A DNA stretch of 48,803 nt from Geotoga petraea (lineage in GTDB: Bacteria > Thermotogota > Thermotogae > Petrotogales > Petrotogaceae), in NCBI RefSeq assembly GCF_900102615.1, contig NZ_FMYV01000010.1, forward strand, positions 1 through 48,803. Reading direction: 5' to 3'. Within the stretch, counting starts at the first letter, position 1, and every line of letters begins with the position of its first letter. The notes below the pieces were generated by a model, which was not told the origin of the DNA, searched no databases, and saw only the letters and a list, made by a program, of their open reading frames with translations. A program made the translations under genes and the position numbers. Positions 9,429 to 48,739 of the stretch are shown piece after piece.

Positions 9429-9576
9429 CTCGTAATTATATTAATAAAATTGTATCACTTTTAAATTATAATATTATTTATATTAAAAATAAATTAATAT
9501 CTATGTATCAATTAATTAAGAAATAAAAATTTTTAGTATGTTAGAATCAAAGTGTAATGAAAAAATTTAATAAGTA

Positions 9577-9656
9577 ACCCTTTCCTATATAACTTCGGAA
9601 ATATGGTCCGAGAGTCTCTACCAAACAACCGTAAATTGTTTGACTATAGGAAGGGG
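9577..9656 (+). ncRNA. Guanine-type purine riboswitch aptamer
   Basis: All the conserved blocks of the purine aptamer are present in order: TATAA, ATATGG, GTCTCTACC, CCGTAAA and GACTAT, with loop-closing helices around them. P1 is long: CCCTTTCCTATA (9578-9589) pairs with TATAGGAAGGG (9645-9655). The specificity base in GACTAT is C, as in guanine/hypoxanthine sensors; adenine sensors have T there. It lies directly upstream of the purine synthesis operon, as expected for end-product control. Confidence 0.95.
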
Positions 9657-9731
9657 GTGCGGGTTATTAAAGCAGTCTAAACGACTGTTATAATTTGATT
9701 TTTTACAATGGCTATGTAAATAATGATTATA

Positions 9732-40144: not shown

Positions 40145-41680
40145 TCAATATTTATAGATCGATCTTTTTACTGATTTAAAAATACCCTTTTTATTTTTAA
40201 CCTTAATATCTTTTGGGCAGAGGTAATATCTAACATTATTTTTTCTATTGATTATTACTTTTTTCCCCATCGATAAGAAATCATATATTAGTACTTCATC
40301 ACTATAAGGAATAACCCACCATTTTCTCAAATAAAAAAGATTTTTATTATCAAAATTATAATACATTTTATTATCTTTTGATAAATACATTATATTCAGA
40401 TAGTCTAAAGCTTTTCTAATAAATATTTTTTGAGATGGTGAGTTTTCTGTAACATTGTAAAAATTATTATTCTCATTTAGTGATTTAGCAATTGATTCGT
40501 CTGGATGATTTTTGTAATTTGTGCCAGAAGAAACTATAAAATTCATATTTTTCTCTTCAGAAAATTCATAATTATAATTATTTTTTGAGCCATGGTGAGG
40601 TATTTGAATGATATATATATTCTTCCAATATCTTTTGTATATATTTTGAATATTTAAATTTTCTTTTTTTATATTTCCATCACCAGTATATAGACACCCA
40701 TGTTTTCCATTATTAGGCTCTAATTTTTTAATTCTTTTATGGAGGAAGTATAATCTTTCATTTTGATTTAAGTATTTCAATGTTTTAAAGTTTTTAACTT
40801 TGCTTTTATACTTCTTCTCATTTAAAATAAGTCTATCAAAACAAATTGTGATTTTTCTGATATTTATTTTTTCTTTTCCAGAATATAAAAACATAGATGA
40901 ATCATTCAAATTTTTAAAAAATTCTTTATACACATCTATTATTTTTTCAATATTTTCTTTGTAATTTTCTGGGATCAATATATCTATGTCTTTTTCCTTT
41001 AATCTACTGCTGATTTTACTATAATATTCTTTACATTTATGATTATAAAGACTATAAACCCATAAATTAGAATTTTTTGAAGATTCACTAATGTTTTGAC
41101 TAATATTAATTTTTAAAAACTTTTTATCATATACTTCAATTTTATTTTTATACTCTGATAATAAATTAGAAAAATCAATCCCTTCTTCAAAAAAAGGTTC
41201 TTTGCGATTTTCCTCATAATAATCAGGGTGTTTTTTTATTATTGTTATGTTATTTAATTTTTCAATTGTTTCTTCATTAAAATTGTAATTTTGTAAATAT
41301 TTATAATTTTTTAGTTGATCATAATAACTATAATTTAAAAACTTGACTGATTCATAGTTACTATGAATCAAACTATTTGATACTTCTATTATGACTTCTT
41401 TCTTTAACAAATACGGAATTATAATCATTTTTATTTCTGATTTTTGTAATAATTTTTCTATACCACTAATATGGTCATTATGAAAATGCGATATAAAAAG
41501 AATATCTATTGTTTTTGAATTGAAATTATTTATGCTTTTTTCTAATGCTTTTTTGTTATTAGAACCACAATCATAAACAATGTTGAATTCTTTTCCATCA
41601 TCAAATTTCAGTTTTTCACTGTAAAATGCTCCTTGCCCAACTGGCCAAAAAATCCTTTCCACTGATTTTATATATTTCAT
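40145..41680 (-). CDS. Metallo-beta-lactamase-fold protein, ComEC/Rec2 type, 511 residues
   Basis: The metal-binding pattern is complete: HFHNDH (65-70), TGDGN (TGD at 332-334), PHHGS (H362, H363) and NHPD (H392). The start VERIFWPVGQGAF matches the free ComEC-like MBL proteins, which have no membrane domain. A long insert (about 110-320) separates the first motifs from the rest. Such enzymes are nucleases or phosphodiesterases and recur in antiphage loci. ATG 41680 has GGGAGGAT upstream. First gene of the five-gene array; 124 bases separate it from the next. Confidence 0.8.
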   Translation of the reverse strand: MKYIKSVERIFWPVGQGAFYSEKLKFDDGKEFNIVYDCGSNNKKALEKSINNFNSKTIDILFISHFHNDHISGIEKLLQKSEIKMIIIPYLLKKEVIIEVSNSLIHSNYESVKFLNYSYYDQLKNYKYLQNYNFNEETIEKLNNITIIKKHPDYYEENRKEPFFEEGIDFSNLLSEYKNKIEVYDKKFLKINISQNISESSKNSNLWVYSLYNHKCKEYYSKISSRLKEKDIDILIPENYKENIEKIIDVYKEFFKNLNDSSMFLYSGKEKINIRKITICFDRLILNEKKYKSKVKNFKTLKYLNQNERLYFLHKRIKKLEPNNGKHGCLYTGDGNIKKENLNIQNIYKRYWKNIYIIQIPHHGSKNNYNYEFSEEKNMNFIVSSGTNYKNHPDESIAKSLNENNNFYNVTENSPSQKIFIRKALDYLNIMYLSKDNKMYYNFDNKNLFYLRKWWVIPYSDEVLIYDFLSMGKKVIINRKNNVRYYLCPKDIKVKNKKGIFKSVKRSIYKY

Positions 41681-44247: not shown

Positions 44248-44850
44248 TTAATTTTTCTTTTCTTTCATTTCTTCTTCAATTTTTTTGATTTGTTCTATAG
44301 AAATTCCCATAGCTTTCGAAATTACTTTTTTATCAACTTTTTCTTTCAATAAATCTTTAGCTGCTTCTAATTTACCTTGTTGAATACCTTGTTGTATCCC
44401 CTGCCTTATGGCTTCTTCTTTTTCTTTAATATATTTCTTTGCAAAACTTTCATACATTTCTTGCACCTCCTCATAGTGCTTTATCTCTTCTTCTATATCC
44501 GTGTCTGTTTTTTCTGATAATATTTTTATAAATCCATAAAAATGACTTCTGAATTTTTCTTTTTCTGTTTCTTCAAATTGTTCAAATATTTCTCTTGATT
44601 TTTCTAATACTTCCAATATATCTTTGTTTTCTATCTTTTTGTCTAAATATAACAATGTTCCCATCGCATTTTTTAATCCTAATAATTTTTCTTCTTCTAT
44701 TTCGTTTAGTTCTATTTTATGGTATTTGAAGTTCGGTATCAGTTCTTTGAAATTTTCTGATTCTTTTATTTTTTGTTTTAGTTCTATTGGTGGTGTCCAT
44801 TTCTTTTCTCCATCATAGAATAGTATCGGTATTTTATTAAGAATTATTTT
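44248..44850 (-). pseudogene. Truncated Rpn-family nuclease gene (N-terminus lost)
   Basis: The reading matches the C-terminal two thirds of Rpn/PDDEXK-type recombination-promoting nucleases: PILFYDGEKKWTPP, then an acidic helical part and the Gln-rich coil RQGIQQGIQQGKLEAAKDLL with the ending KAMGISIEQIKKIEEEM. The N-terminal nuclease domain (about 100 residues) is missing: upstream of ~44850 the frame runs into TTGTTGG repeats, which supply a spurious start at 44898. Unlikely to be functional. Confidence 0.8.
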
Positions 44851-44854
44851 AAAA

Positions 44855-45070
44855 AAAATAATTCTGTTGTTGGTTGGAGGATGGAGGTTGTTAGTCATAA
44901 AATGCTCCGCATTTTTGTTGTTGGTTTATTGTTGTTTGTTTTTGGTTTACTATATTTTTTTAAAATGTTTTTTTCTAACAACTAACAACCAGCATCTAAA
45001 AACAGAAATCTTTGATTTCTTCTCTTCCAACCATAAACCTTCAACAGAAATCATTTTATGATTTCTACCC
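44855..45070. repeat. Repeat block with four variable hairpins
   Basis: TTGTTGG/AACAACC tracts alternate with hairpins AAAATGC-TCC-GCATTTT (44898), AGAAATC-TTT-GATTTCT (45003) and AGAAATCAT-TTT-ATGATTTCT (45046), each with a different stem. No gene is seen from 44855 to 45563. Confidence 0.7.
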
Positions 45071-45112
45071 TTTTGATCTAGCGAAGAGTTCTATTTATTA
45101 TTTAGACATAAA

Positions 45113-45305
45113 ATAATGAAGAAATATAAAAATGAAAAGTATTGGAGTTTTACTGAGTGAGACAATATAAAAATTGATGTTGAAAAACACGGATGTTTTT
45201 CATGCGAATTTATCCATGGATGGATAATATGAGCTGTACATCAATTTTATTGTTGAACGAAGGTTAAAAAACGACCTACTTTGAATTTTTATATTTCGTA
45301 ATTGT
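45113..45305 (+). repeat. 193-bp element with 20-bp inverted ends and inner stems
   Basis: ATAATGAAGAAATATAAAAA (45113-45132) and, reversed, ACAATTACGAAATATAAAAA (45286-45305) form near-perfect terminal inverted repeats, related to those at 17123. Inside, ACAATATAAAAATTGATGT (45162-45180) pairs with ACATCAATTTTATTGT (45237-45252), enclosing hairpins TGAAAAACA-CGGA-TGTTTTTCA and TTATCCA-TGGA-TGGATAA. It could fold as one branched RNA or DNA cruciform. No coding potential. Confidence 0.65.
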
Positions 45306-45339
45306 TTTTTCTAATAAATTTTCTTTGAAAATTAACTGA

Positions 45340-45500
45340 AGAGACCCTTACGACTCACTTTGTTCGCTCAGGGTGACATATTTTATAGTTTTAACGTTTT
45401 ATTAACTAACAACCAACAACAATAAACAAGCAGCTGAGAAATTGTAAAACAATTTCTACTAAGAACCTTTGACAAGCTCAGGGTGACATTATGTTTAACC
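45340..45500. repeat. TGTCACCCTGAG-type repeats and a TTGTTRG/hairpin tract
   Basis: Two inverted TGTCACCCTGAGC elements (about 45345-45381 and 45464-45491, both minus-oriented) flank an AACAACC tract with a GAGAAATTG / CAATTTCT hairpin (45432-45453). Confidence 0.65.
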
Positions 45501-45563
45501 TATAAAGAGACTTGATGAAAATAATCCCTAAAATATTTATTACTTTTTTTACAGGCTTTATTT

Positions 45564-47075
45564 TTATAATTTTTCGGTTATGTAATTTGTAATATTTCTT
45601 TTGGTTGTATCGATTTCTATACCTATTATCGTAATTGATTTTTTGTATTTTTCTGAGTATTCTTTTTGTTTTATTTGTTGAATGCTTTTTTCTGGCTTAT
45701 CTTTTTTTAATTCTATTATGTATATATCATTTTCAAATTCTAATTCTATATCACTTTTTCCAAGATTACCTGGAACTTCAGCTTTTGCTTTTAATCCACA
45801 AGCCCAGAATATTGTTAGTATTATACTGTGATACCAGCTTTCTTTTTCTTGAAATAGATTGTAGGGGATTTTATTGAATATTGTTTTTATTTCTTCGATT
45901 ACTTTTTCAATATTTTTGTTTTGGAGTGATATTATTATATTTTGTTTTAGATTTTCTTCAGAAATATTGAATGTTTCTTCTAATAACAATTCTGACATAC
46001 TCTCTTTTACTTCTCTATTTGGATAGTCTACTAAAAAACCTAAGTATTCTTTTTTATCTTTAAACGTTAAATACCCAGATTGAATAAGGTATATTATTGG
46101 TGGAGCATTTTCTATTTCATAAGTTGTAAGTTTTGATTCATCTATGTATTTATTAGTTATATCTTCTAATTGAATTTTATGTTTTTTGATGTATTCAGAC
46201 AAATATTGAGGAGTTCCAGTTTCTATCCAATAATTTTTGAATTCTTTGTCTTGGAAAAAATGTAATATTGAGAATGGATTATACACAAAATTTTTTCCAT
46301 CAAAAGAAAATCCATTATAATTTTCTTTAATTTTTTCGAGTAATTTTTCATTATCTATGTTTAATTCTTTTGATGTTTCGGATATAAAATCTTGAAAATA
46401 ATATTCAAGTTCATTTTGTGTTACCCCCATCATTTGGGAATAGTTTTTATTTGTTGTAATATCTCTCAAATTATTTAATGTTGAAAAAATACCTGTTTTT
46501 GTTAATTTTGTTATTCCTGTCATGAAAGCAAATTTTATATATTGATCAGCTTCTTTTATTATTACGTAGAATTCTTTTAGTATATTTCTTATAGATTCAG
46601 CTTTTCCATCATTTATATGATTCAATATAGGTCTATCATACTCATCTATTAAAATTACTACATCTTTTTTAGAAGACAGTTTTTTTATTAATGTCCAAAA
46701 AAGCATTTTTAGGTTTTCTGTATCTGGTTCTATATTATTCTCTTCATAAATAGAAAGTATTTGATACTTAAGAGTTTCTTTTATTGTTTCTTCATTTGTT
46801 ATATCTATTTGTGCCATACTTAATCTTATAATTGGATATTTTTCCCATTCCCATTTGTCATAAATATATGTGTTTTTAAATAGCTCTTTTTCTCCAGAGA
46901 AAAGATAAAATAAAGTTGATACTGTCAGGCTCTTTCCAAATCTTCTGGGCCTTGATATGAATATAGGTACTCCATTTTTTGCAAGTTCGTATATATATTT
47001 TGTTTTGTCTATGTATACATAATTATTTTCTATTATGTTTTTGAAGTCCTGTTTACCAATTGGAAATTTTTTCAT
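45564..47075 (-). CDS. AAA-ATPase-like protein with C-terminal PD-(D/E)XK nuclease domain
   Basis: 503 residues, full length for this large family. The N-terminal KFPIGKQDFKNIIENNYVYIDKTKYIYEL is its hallmark; Walker A-like RPRRFGKSLTVSTL and Walker B VVILIDEYDRPI follow; the end holds a PD-(D/E)XK pattern (GKSDIELEF, YIIELKK). Many near-identical copies occur per genome in anaerobes and Thermotogota, and their function is not established; mobility or defence has been suggested. AAGGTGATAAT precedes ATG 47075, and a tRNA 3'-end lies just upstream. Confidence 0.88.
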   Translation of the reverse strand: MKKFPIGKQDFKNIIENNYVYIDKTKYIYELAKNGVPIFISRPRRFGKSLTVSTLFYLFSGEKELFKNTYIYDKWEWEKYPIIRLSMAQIDITNEETIKETLKYQILSIYEENNIEPDTENLKMLFWTLIKKLSSKKDVVILIDEYDRPILNHINDGKAESIRNILKEFYVIIKEADQYIKFAFMTGITKLTKTGIFSTLNNLRDITTNKNYSQMMGVTQNELEYYFQDFISETSKELNIDNEKLLEKIKENYNGFSFDGKNFVYNPFSILHFFQDKEFKNYWIETGTPQYLSEYIKKHKIQLEDITNKYIDESKLTTYEIENAPPIIYLIQSGYLTFKDKKEYLGFLVDYPNREVKESMSELLLEETFNISEENLKQNIIISLQNKNIEKVIEEIKTIFNKIPYNLFQEKESWYHSIILTIFWACGLKAKAEVPGNLGKSDIELEFENDIYIIELKKDKPEKSIQQIKQKEYSEKYKKSITIIGIEIDTTKRNITNYITEKL

Positions 47076-47096
47076 ATTATCACCTTATTCATTTCG

Positions 47097-47129
47097 AAAG
47101 TCGGGGTTCAAATCCCCTGGGTGTTACCA
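47097..47129 (+). other. tRNA 3'-end fragment (possible attachment-site scar)
   Basis: GGGG-TTCAAAT-CCCC forms a T-arm with the TTCAAAT loop, followed by TGGGTGTTA and CCA, the acceptor strand with encoded CCA. No D-arm, anticodon arm or 5' acceptor strand lies upstream; instead the start of the AAA/PD-(D/E)XK gene is there. This is what integration into, or deletion of, a tRNA gene leaves behind. The amino acid cannot be told. Confidence 0.6.
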
Positions 47130-47155
47130 AAAATTAAAATCAATAAAATTATATC

Positions 47156-47275
47156 ATAGATTTCTGTTGTTAGTTGTTAGTGAGAAATTGTTTCACAATT
47201 TCAGATGGAAGTTGGAAGAGAAAACATTAAAACCTGAGATTCTCAACTTCAAAAACCGTTGATCAGAATGACAGA
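47156..47275. repeat. Mixed intergenic repeats
   Basis: TTGTTAG tract with GAGAAATTG-TTT-CACAATTTC hairpin (47180-47201), followed by a minus-oriented TGTCATTCTGATC...GAGAATCTC element (47232-47272) related to 31850-31888. Confidence 0.65.
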
Positions 47276-47383
47276 ATAAATAAAACTTTTATAAATGTAG
47301 TAAATATATTATTTATAAAATTATTTTTTATGAAATATATTTATAAAATTTGATTTTTTATGTTTTTAGTTATACAATTTAAA

Positions 47384-47389
47384 TATAAT
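47384..47389 (+). promoter_or_regulatory. Probable -10 box of the antitoxin RNA
   Basis: TATAAT 18 bases upstream of the first repeat unit; the -35 region is not obvious (TTTTTA near 47363). Confidence 0.45.
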
Positions 47390-47407
47390 TAAGTATTGCG
47401 GTGAAGC

Positions 47408-47527
47408 GGTGATCCCTACCAATACCAAAACGGGAAGTATAGCACGCGGTGATCCCTACCAACACCAAAACGGGAAGTATAGTACGTGGTGATCCCTACC
47501 AACACCAAAACGGGAAGTATAGATAGT
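47408..47527 (+). ncRNA. toxI: Type III antitoxin RNA: three tandem 40-nt pseudoknot repeats (ToxI-like)
   Basis: Three units (47408, 47448, 47488) start GGTGATCCCTACC and contain ACCAAAACGGGAAGTATAG. In each, GGTG can pair with CACC (TACC in unit 1, still pairing through G-U), and TCCC in the loop with GGGA downstream, an H-type pseudoknot. Exact 40-nt periodicity, a GC content well above the surroundings, a terminator right after and a ToxN-family frame next match type III systems, in which the repeat RNA, cut into units, wraps and blocks the toxin. The GGTGAT...CTACC string also recalls Pectobacterium ToxI. Confidence 0.85.
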
Positions 47528-47565
47528 AGCCGTAATACTTATTTTTATTTTAAAATTTATAAAAT

Positions 47566-47598
47566 GTGGAGGTTATTAAATTAATCTCCATTTTTTTT
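47566..47598 (+). terminator. Terminator between antitoxin RNA and toxN
   Basis: TGGAG-x-TTA / TAA-x-CTCCA followed by eight T. A leaky terminator at this spot is standard in type III systems and keeps antitoxin RNA in excess over toxin mRNA. Confidence 0.88.
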
Positions 47599-47608
47599 GA
47601 GGTGTTTT

Positions 47609-48112
47609 ATGGTAAGCAATCATTTGAAAATATAGATAATTAATGATGATTATTTTTTGTACTTATCAAAATTTGATAGTAGAATATATCATAATAAGAA
47701 TGGGAAAAGACCTTATTTGGGAATTTTTATTGATTTAAAAGATATCAAATATTTTGTTCCTATGGTATCTCCAAAAGAAAAACATAAAAAAATGAAAAAT
47801 AATATTGATTTTCATAAAATTGATGGAGGTAAATATGGGGCATTAAATTTTAATGCAATGATACCAGTTGGAAATAATGATTACAATCTAATGGATTTTT
47901 CTTCTTTAGCGGCACATAGAGTTAACCAAATGAATGATCAATTAAAATGGTTCCAACTAAATAAAGATAAAATTATTAAAAAAGCAAATAATATTAGAAA
48001 CAGATTTTTAAATAACTCATTACCTAAAACAATAAAAGAAAGATGCCTTAACTTTATTATTTTAGAAGATAAATTAAAAGAATGGATAAACCTCCCTAGA
48101 AATAATTATTAA
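47609..48112 (+). pseudogene. toxN: ToxN/AbiQ-family type III toxin with an amber codon at position 9
   Basis: From ATG 47609 (GAGGTG upstream) the frame gives 167 residues, the usual ToxN length, interrupted only by TAG at 47633-47635. Sequence: SNHLKI, stop, IINDDYFLYLSKFDSRIYHNKNGKRPYLGIFI, then YFVPMVSPKEKH and HKIDGGKYGALNFNAMIPV, matching the ToxN core. Relatives have tyrosine at the stop position (KFY), so one base change (TAT/TAC to TAG) explains it. ToxN is an endoribonuclease giving phage resistance. The product would be dead unless translation restarts (TTG 47657, losing 16 residues) or the stop is read through. Confidence 0.82.
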
Positions 48113-48243
48113 TATTTTAATTTCAGTTTTAATCTTGTTAGATTCCTGTTGATGATTTGAAGATACACGAACCAAAACCTTATAATAGGTACTTCTATAA
48201 AATTTTAAGACTTTGTATATAAGTTTTTACGGTATATTCTGAT
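48113..48243. other. AT-rich stretch, nothing recognised
   Basis: No gene, hairpin or repeat stands out between toxN and the promoter-hairpin module. Confidence 0.4.
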
Positions 48244-48333
48244 TTGCATAATTTTTTGGATTTAGCATATAATTATATTAGCATTTTTGTTAAAAATCTC
48301 CGCATATAATTTTATGTGCGGATGTTTCTACCA
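48244..48333 (+). repeat. Promoter-plus-hairpin module, copy 2
   Basis: TTGCAT, 18 bases, TATAAT (48268-48273), TTTTTGTTAAAAA, then the hairpin CCGCATA...TGTGCGG and TGTTTCTACC. Same order and spacing as 44001-44092. Confidence 0.5.
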
Positions 48334-48354: not shown

Positions 48355-48447
48355 GTTGTTAGTTGTTAGTTGTTGGTTGTTGGTTGTTGGTTATTAGTTG
48401 TTAGTTGTTGGTTGTTGGTTGTTTGTTGTTAGTTGTTGGTTGTTGGT
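48355..48447 (+). repeat. Heptamer minisatellite (TTGTTRG)n
   Basis: About 13 uninterrupted units of TTAGTTG or TTGGTTG, the longest such tract here. Shorter tracts on either strand border most hairpin repeats of the window. Confidence 0.9.
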
Positions 48448-48625: not shown

Positions 48626-48739
48626 AAGGGGCGAAACCTACTCTTGCACACAATAAGTGTACTACCATCGGCATGAGTTGGCTTAACGGCCAGGTTCGGA
48701 ATGGATCTGGGTGTGTCCCATCTCATTATCCTCACCCCT
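48626..48739 (-). rRNA. rrf: 5S ribosomal RNA
   Basis: Minus strand begins GGGGTGAGGATAATG and contains the conserved CACACCCAGATCCATTCCGAACCTGG and GCCGATGGTAGTA blocks; the ends GGGGTG/CGCCCC pair. About 113 nt. Confidence 0.96.

What the first reader, a model, noticed from the sequence alone, without database searches (positions are those of the whole stretch)
47384..48112. Type III (ToxIN/AbiQ) toxin-antitoxin locus with three 40-nt pseudoknot repeats and an amber-interrupted toxin
Seen: three tandem 40-nt units that can each form an H-type pseudoknot, a hairpin terminator, then a frame of exactly ToxN length with a ToxN-like core and a single TAG at codon 9. Known: type III systems consist of promoter, repeat RNA, leaky terminator and endoribonuclease toxin. 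Unit length 40 and the sequence differ from the ToxI (36) and AbiQ (35) prototypes I recall, so the RNA may define a new subtype, perhaps in a phylum where such systems are little described. The lone TAG suggests recent silencing of the toxin, readthrough, or a phase-like ON/OFF state.
Basis: partly seen in the sequence, partly recalled or inferred. Interest (0 to 1): 0.85.

Follow-up and report, generated by a model that had tools for sequence, protein, structure and literature searches.

The report
Silenced ToxIN toxin-antitoxin locus
This is a bacterial toxin-antitoxin pair of a known kind, in which a small RNA normally holds an RNA-cutting toxin in check; here the RNA part looks intact but the toxin gene is interrupted by a stop signal, so the pair is most likely switched off, and it is of moderate interest because it was the only one found among the searched genomes of its bacterial group and its RNA has some unusual features.

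Summary
In detail: three 40-nt units (47404-47523), a terminator hairpin and a ToxN frame (47609-48112) with one in-frame TAG at codon 9. Read through, the frame matches Pfam ToxN (136 bits) and its model matches AbiQ and three ToxN structures (Z 19-21). In 63 tested units (62 from relatives) both pseudoknot stems can form, and stem 2 covaries. By descent it is a type III ToxIN locus, most like those of Bacillota. It is the only PF13958 match in 103 held genomes of its phylum.

A new subtype by unit length is not supported: relatives' units run 34-42 nt with the same core. Phase switching has no support. Most likely the toxin was silenced recently. Two features set the RNA apart: its linkers lack the A-run seen in 68 of 68 measured relatives (the known type of ToxN cut site), and a 13-bp helix could close the array (at most 9 bp in 66 relatives). 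These may be decay, changed cut specificity, or an RNA kept without its toxin. Val53 stands where E. coli ToxN needs Thr52, but AbiQ aligns Leu there: inconclusive. Coverage, sister strains and expression could not be checked.

The parts
47350..47389 (+). Possible promoter of the RNA: TTGATT-17-TACAAT (47350-47378), and a second TATAAT at 47384-47389
   Evidence: First pair from the consensus scan, 9 of 12 matches; 14 promoter-like sites found in the region against 8.8 (sd 3.0) in shuffles, so weak. Second hexamer read from the sequence.
47390..47402 (+). 5' arm of a 13-bp helix that could enclose the whole array
   Evidence: Pairs with 47529-47541 in the minimum-energy fold; 8 of 5000 shuffles reach its score, segments chosen after the helix was seen; at most 9 bp in 66 relatives under a similar rule.
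47404..47443 (+). ToxI unit 1: stem 1 GGU (47408-47410)/ACC, stem 2 UCCC/GGGA
   Evidence: found by a profile built from relatives without the window, 13 bits.
47444..47483 (+). ToxI unit 2, same stems
   Evidence: 8 bits.
47484..47523 (+). ToxI unit 3, same stems
   Evidence: 8 bits.
47529..47541 (+). 3' arm of the closing helix, followed by a U-rich stretch
47566..47598 (+). Intrinsic terminator between RNA and toxin (10-pair stem 47566-47591, then T tract to 47598)
   Evidence: Only terminator-like site in 47100-48250; mean 0.5 in shuffles.
47599..47604 (+). Shine-Dalgarno-like GAGGTG before the toxin start
   Evidence: Read from the sequence.
47609..48112 (+). toxN, interrupted: TAG at codon 9 (47633-47635); 167 codons if read through; Val at codon 53
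   Evidence: PF13958 136.4 bits with 1 TAG inside; the frame from the TTG at 47657 alone 127.2 bits; PDB ToxN/AbiQ by sequence and by fold.

Best explanation
A type III toxin-antitoxin locus of the ToxIN/AbiQ family, probably acquired by horizontal transfer and most like those of Bacillota, whose toxin has been switched off recently by one amber stop at codon 9. SHOWN here: three near-identical units, each able to form the two stems of the ToxI pseudoknot, with covariation among relatives; an intrinsic terminator; and a ToxN frame, complete but for one stop, whose read-through model has the ToxN fold. INFERRED from the family's known biology: before silencing it worked as other ToxINs do. The RNA was transcribed through the repeats, with some transcripts passing the terminator to make ToxN; ToxN cut the precursor and was held inactive in a complex with the units; phage infection freed it to cut RNA and stop the cell. 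INFERRED for the present: ribosomes entering at the ATG release after an 8-residue peptide, so no folded ToxN is made (codon 9 lies in the first beta strand of the model, residues 8-11), while the RNA can still be transcribed.
For: Identity: PF13958 E 8.8e-37 for the frame from the TTG alone and 1.3e-39 with the stop read through; PADLOC AbiQ 1.9e-30; PDB ToxN 2xd0, 7d8o, 4ato and AbiQ 4glk by sequence; a model with pLDDT 90.7 and pTM 0.86 matching 4glk, 4ato, 2xd0 and 7d8o at Z 21.0, 20.3, 19.5 and 19.3 over 150-156 residues, rmsd 2.0-2.3, and CptN 4rmo at 13.0. RNA: 63 of 63 tested units can form both stems; swapping stem-2 partners among 17 distinct classes never reaches the observed pairing (0 of 2000), stem 1 in 10 of 2000; covariation score 0.288 against 0.151 shuffled (0 of 500 as high), and every slid version lower. 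Recent silencing: one stop only; 5.8% of single substitutions in the 158 codons after it would make a stop, so about 12 free substitutions would give an even chance of a second one. Transfer: 0 of the other 102 held genomes of the phylum has the family at E 0.001; the tree sets the toxin beside a Bacillota group (97/83).
Against: The stop is one codon in a draft assembly; neither reads nor a second strain could be checked. The toxin sits on a long branch (1.93 against a median of 0.26), and the tree tool warns that its place is unsure and lists no small supported set that holds it. It departs from 9 of 38 well-conserved columns where the relatives' median is 2, which could mean older decay; but other long-branched rows depart as much (L004 9, the Pectobacterium plasmid ToxN L005 8, L007 13, L028 and L029 14). 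Val at the position of Thr52 could be a second lesion: Thr52Val abolishes toxicity of E. coli ToxN (PMC8860590, passages). But 9 of 104 relatives have Ala, Tyr or Phe there, and AbiQ, an active RNase, aligns Leu there, so it settles nothing. Of 13 further columns that shuffled pair-count measures cover, two of the five measures (pairs changed on both sides, pair types) are not above shuffles (50 and 85 of 500). The relatives compared are the 80 nearest of 493 found, so the donor sample is selected. Promoter evidence is weak, and the whole RNA folds only slightly better than shuffles (z -1.58).
Confidence: 0.7

Rival explanations
1. The stop is a base-calling or assembly error, or a minority variant of the culture; the locus is an intact working ToxIN.
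For: One lesion only, in an otherwise open frame whose read-through model folds well; near-identical RNA units.
Against: No direct test was possible: coverage is unknown. A lone stop is also what selection against a toxin gives; 4 of 108 relatives have an early stop too, one of them TAG.
Confidence: 0.1
2. Toxin is still made at a low level, by amber readthrough or by restart at the in-frame TTG (47657).
For: The frame from the TTG alone still scores 127 bits to ToxN.
Against: TAG ends 2 of 34 long frames of the window as an ordinary stop. A restart product would lack residues 1-16, that is strand 8-11 and part of helix 13-20 of the model; no Shine-Dalgarno is visible before the TTG (read). 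Suppressor tRNAs of the whole genome were not searched.
Confidence: 0.08
3. The RNA is kept by selection without its toxin, as an antitoxin-only decoy that neutralises ToxN proteins arriving on plasmids or phages; the closing helix and the linkers without A-runs would make it a stable RNA that ToxN does not cut.
For: Units nearly identical although the toxin is broken; linkers lack the A-run that 68 of 68 measured relatives have; 13-bp closing helix. Precedent: phage PhiTE escapes ToxIN by expanding pseudo-ToxI repeats (PMC3475682, abstract and passages).
Against: If the stop is recent, the units need no selection to be still alike; linker and helix may predate the stop. The precursor is the preferred substrate and processing is thought to go with inhibition (PMC5086642, passages), so uncut RNA might inhibit less. 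No ToxN other than the window's and no other copy of the unit was found in the genome. No expression data.
Confidence: 0.07
4. A new type III subtype defined by the 40-nt RNA.
For: Linker and closing helix differ from the relatives measured.
Against: Unit length and pseudoknot core lie within the range of the relatives; the toxin falls in PF13958 well above the cut-off, and its CptIN match is far under that family's cut-off (16.4 of 90 bits).
Confidence: 0.03

Closest known systems
ToxIN of Pectobacterium atrosepticum, E. coli and Bacillus thuringiensis (PDB 2xd0, 7d8o, 4ato)
   Same: Order RNA repeats - terminator - toxin; H-type pseudoknot with two short stems; ToxN fold (Z 19.3-20.3); Arg at the Lys33 position, Ser and Lys at those of Ser53 and Lys55.
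   Different: Toxin interrupted at codon 9; Val at the Thr52 position; no A-run between units, where these ToxNs cut AA/AU, GAA/AU and AAA/AA (PMC8860590, passages); possible closing helix.
AbiQ/antiQ of Lactococcus (PDB 4glk)
   Same: Highest Z of the structural matches, tied within 1 with 4ato (21.0 and 20.3); PADLOC names the protein AbiQ; a hydrophobic residue at the Thr52 position in both.
   Different: AbiQ cuts A/AAA (PMC5086642, passages), a site the window's linkers lack; toxin interrupted.
ToxIN loci of Bacilli and Clostridia in genome contigs (e.g. L033, L081, L051)
   Same: Same repeat core; three profile hits is the commonest count (read from the list); units of 39 and 40 nt in L033 and L081; toxin identity up to 47% in the best segment (L051), 43% over 156 columns.
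   Different: Linkers with A-runs; in the ten loci printed the terminator follows the last unit almost directly (read by eye, not counted), against 42 bases in the window; toxin frames of these three open.
Pseudo-ToxI of phage PhiTE
   Same: ToxI-like repeats without a working toxin of their own (PMC3475682, abstract and passages).
   Different: There a phage counter-defence without toxin gene; here the toxin gene is present and broken.

Membership tests
Type III TA, ToxIN/AbiQ family | Toxin of the ToxN family by sequence | tested here: met
   PF13958 136.4 bits, cut-off 25, with one TAG inside; 127.2 bits for the frame from the TTG.
Type III TA, ToxIN/AbiQ family | ToxN fold | tested here: met
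   Model of the read-through protein, stop read as Tyr, pLDDT 90.7; four ToxN/AbiQ structures at Z 19.3-21.0.
Type III TA, ToxIN/AbiQ family | Tandem repeats upstream, each able to form an H-type pseudoknot, supported by covariation | tested here: met
   Folding itself was not measured.
Type III TA, ToxIN/AbiQ family | Intrinsic terminator between repeats and toxin | tested here: met
   47566-47591, a consensus match.
Type III TA, ToxIN/AbiQ family | Promoter before the repeats | tested here: inconclusive
   Consensus sites present but little above expectation (14 against 8.8, sd 3.0).
Type III TA, ToxIN/AbiQ family | A-rich cut site between units (usual; specificity varies between toxins, so I do not hold it to be defining) | tested here: not met
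   Longest A-run after stem 2 is 1 in both window linkers; 3 or more in 68 of 68 measured relatives.
Type III TA, ToxIN/AbiQ family | Active-site residues at the positions of Lys33, Thr52, Ser53, Lys55 | tested here: inconclusive
   Arg34, Ser54 and Lys56 present; Val53 in place of Thr52; 95 of 104 relatives have Ser or Thr there, 9 do not; AbiQ aligns Leu.
Working type III TA pair | Intact toxin reading frame | tested here: not met
   TAG at codon 9. It is a member by descent, not a demonstrated working pair.
Working type III TA pair | Toxicity, RNA processing, neutralisation, phage defence | not testable with these tools
   Needs experiments.
CptIN | CptN-type toxin by NCBI's curated model | tested here: not met
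   NF047359 16.4 bits against a cut-off of 90. The CptN structure 4rmo matches the model at Z 13.0, well below the ToxNs.

The most novel reading that the evidence does not exclude
The RNA outlived its toxin by selection: a closed, uncut triple pseudoknot that serves as a chromosomal antidote against ToxN toxins brought in by plasmids or phages. Or, short of that: a ToxIN lineage whose toxin, while alive, had moved its cut site from A-runs to another linker (GGGAAGUAUAG).
Probability: 0.1. Interest if true: 0.7.

Novelty: new member of a known kind. Interest (0 to 1): 0.36.

Why it matters
It is the only ToxN match among 103 held genomes of its phylum, so it records the arrival of such a system there and the loss of its toxin. 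If the unusual linkers and the closing helix predate the stop, they would show how far ToxI processing sites can drift; if the array is kept without the toxin, it would be a chromosomal ToxI antidote that can be tested directly.

Tried and rejected
New RNA subtype by unit length: rejected. Rfam: nothing at gathering threshold in the locus; six weak matches below threshold, the best the L20 leader at 25.2 of 58.7 bits, taken as chance. NCBIfam gave only a sub-threshold CptIN match for the toxin, no ToxN model. Leader hairpin before the array: 9 of 66 relatives at p 0.05 or below, the window 0.08; not a general feature. Closing helix in relatives: first with a 22-base trailer, best 8 bp, then with 44 bases, best 9 bp; the slices are not placed identically with respect to the units, so the comparison is approximate, and the window's segments were chosen after the helix was seen. 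The whole 219-base RNA folds only slightly better than shuffles (z -1.58, 14 of 200); that program cannot show pseudoknots. ToxI-like units in viral contigs: two exact patterns, 0 matches. CptIN in the own genome: no match, but the control rang nowhere, so no proof of absence. The unit in the family's 21 genomes with up to 3 mismatches: the window's three only. Annotated records: ToxN relatives in 75 plasmid and 2 phage records, none above 60% identity. Organism: no tool named it. PurL and HisF searches in the PDB did not decide it. Papers: none of the held library has both ToxN and Thermotog*; two have Thermotog* and 'type III toxin-antitoxin' (listing only); a search on interrupted ToxN listed 8 of 261 papers, none on point by title. 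The review says type III systems occur in 8 bacterial phyla (PMC5086642, passages); I did not see which eight, so I do not claim that the phylum is new to print.

Rows dropped before counts: of 108 relatives, 85 had a profile hit (86 of 109 loci with the window); 70 passed the unit filter, 68 of them with a measured spacing; 62 distinct units were aligned with the window's three; 63 were tested for pairing, two window units with the same stems being left out; 68 linkers were measured. Relatives with other repeat sequences, such as Pectobacterium (L005), fell out here. A looser linker slice that reaches into the loop gives the window an A-run of 3, relatives 3-7; the strict slice is. Toxin columns: 104 of 108 relatives had at least 120 open codons; the tree has 99 distinct rows, the window included. 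Early stops were counted only when fewer than 140 codons were open; L090 has a stop further down.

Full report
What was checked. Three units of 40 nt lie in tandem (47404-47523; TRF score 213, 96% matches), differing pairwise at 2-4 positions. A terminator-like hairpin lies at 47566-47591 (mean 0.5 in shuffles). The frame 47609-48112 has TAG as codon 9 and is otherwise open; 0 of 2000 shuffles of the 158 codons after it stay open.

The toxin. The frame from the TTG after the stop scores 127 bits to Pfam ToxN. With the stop read through, the whole-genome search gives 136 bits over profile positions 2-159 of 159, one TAG inside, and no other match in the genome. By sequence the nearest solved structures are ToxN of Pectobacterium, E. 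coli and B. thuringiensis and AbiQ (organisms as recalled or from titles). A model of the read-through protein from 30 aligned sequences is confident (pLDDT 90.7). It matches AbiQ and the three ToxNs at Z 19.3-21.0, CptN at 13.0, and MazF/CcdB toxins at about 6 (Foldseek lists the same five first). Codon 9 lies in the first strand, residues 8-11.

Is it dead? Only one stop is seen. In the 158 codons after it, 5.8% of single substitutions would make a stop, so about 12 free substitutions give an even chance of a second one and about 50 a 95% chance. Silencing is therefore recent compared with the divergence from the relatives found, if substitutions have been free since. TAG is an ordinary stop here. 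The Thr52 position holds Val. In E. coli ToxN, Thr52Val removes toxicity (PMC8860590, passages); but 9 of 104 relatives lack Ser/Thr there and AbiQ aligns Leu. I count this as inconclusive. Early stops are not unique to the window: 4 of 108 relatives have one before 140 codons, one TAG and the others TAA.

The RNA. A profile built from relatives' units, with the window left out, still finds the window's three (13, 8 and 8 bits). In 63 of 63 tested units both stems can form. Partners swapped among classes pair worse (stem 2: 0 of 2000 as good; stem 1: 10 of 2000). The MAFFT alignment has stem 2 out of register by a base in part of the rows, the window's among them. On it 90.3% of cells pair, against 83.4% in shuffles (0 of 500 as high), and the covariation score is 0.288 against 0.151 (0 of 500); all slid versions are lower. 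Two further measures are not above shuffles: pairs changed on both sides (50 of 500) and pair types (85 of 500). The outer stem-2 pair occurs as UA, CG, GC, UG, AU and GU. The window's stems are GGU/ACC and UCCC/GGGA.

What differs. Linkers: between stem 2 and the next stem 1, 68 of 68 measured relatives have an A-run of at least 3 (57 of 68 at least 4); both window linkers have 1. Known ToxNs and AbiQ cut A-rich sites (PMC8860590 and PMC5086642, passages). A cut at GAA/GU just after stem 2 would resemble the E. coli site GAA/AU; this is inference. Closing helix: 47390-47402 can pair with 47529-47541 over 13 bp, 8 of 5000 shuffles as good; in 66 relatives the best is 9 bp. The terminator starts 42 bases after the last unit; in the ten relatives printed it follows almost directly (read by eye).

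Where it came from. Of 103 held genomes of the phylum only the window's has PF13958 at E 0.001, of 21 in the family likewise. Of 493 relatives found in genome contigs the best 80 were kept; by title they are Bacilli, Clostridia and other Bacillota, one Mollicutes, one 'uncultured bacterium' and four Treponema. The tree puts the window beside 66 rows, 65 of them Bacillota (97/83), on a long branch, and warns that such a place is unsure. The review reports the ToxN family primarily in Firmicutes and Fusobacteria (PMC5086642, passages). The locus sits between an AAA-ATPase-like gene and a 5S rRNA gene, 48626-48739, probably of an rRNA operon cut by the contig end (contig length 48803). A piece resembling the 3' half of tRNA-Glu lies at 47089-47129; ARAGORN and Rfam do not report it. 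It would fit an old integration site nearby, which is not shown.

Verdict. A type III ToxIN locus by descent, the only one in the held sample of its phylum, with a probably recently silenced toxin and an intact array with unusual linkers: a new member of a known kind. The bolder reading, an array kept as an antidote without its toxin, is open and testable.

Noticed in passing
47089-47129: A stretch like the 3' half of a tRNA-Glu gene, from near the anticodon to CCA (32 of 41 bases as in the tRNA-Glu(CTC) of contig C4); ARAGORN and Rfam do not report it. Possible remnant of an integration site.
   Followed up: partly
48355-48447: 7-nt GTTGTTA/GTTGTTG repeats beside the 5S rRNA gene; a 20-base pattern gives 62 (partly overlapping) matches with up to 1 mismatch in the own genome, in clusters, one near the end of contig C4, and 0 in the 20 other genomes of the family; the reversed control gives 5.
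   Followed up: partly
44248-47075: Two neighbours of mobile or nuclease type: Rpn/Transposase_31-like (44248-44898) and AAA-ATPase-like with a PDDEXK_9 domain (45564-47075).
   Followed up: partly
40145-41680: Metallo-beta-lactamase-fold protein with matches to the PADLOC models LmuA, PDC-M48B and RTasMBL and, below cut-off, ComEC and RNase Z models.
   Followed up: no
9565-9666: Purine riboswitch (85.4 bits) upstream of genes that look like purine biosynthesis (names recalled).
   Followed up: no
L066, L099, L055, L095 (toxin frames): Relatives whose ToxN frame also has an early stop; L066 keeps three units of 22 bits each.
   Followed up: partly
L002:1501-2373: A Fusobacterium plasmid ToxN of 290 aa, longer at the C terminus than the other relatives aligned with it.
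   Followed up: no
L103, L102, L049, upstream of the array: Strong hairpins directly before the ToxI array in three of 66 relatives (p 0.01 or below).
   Followed up: partly
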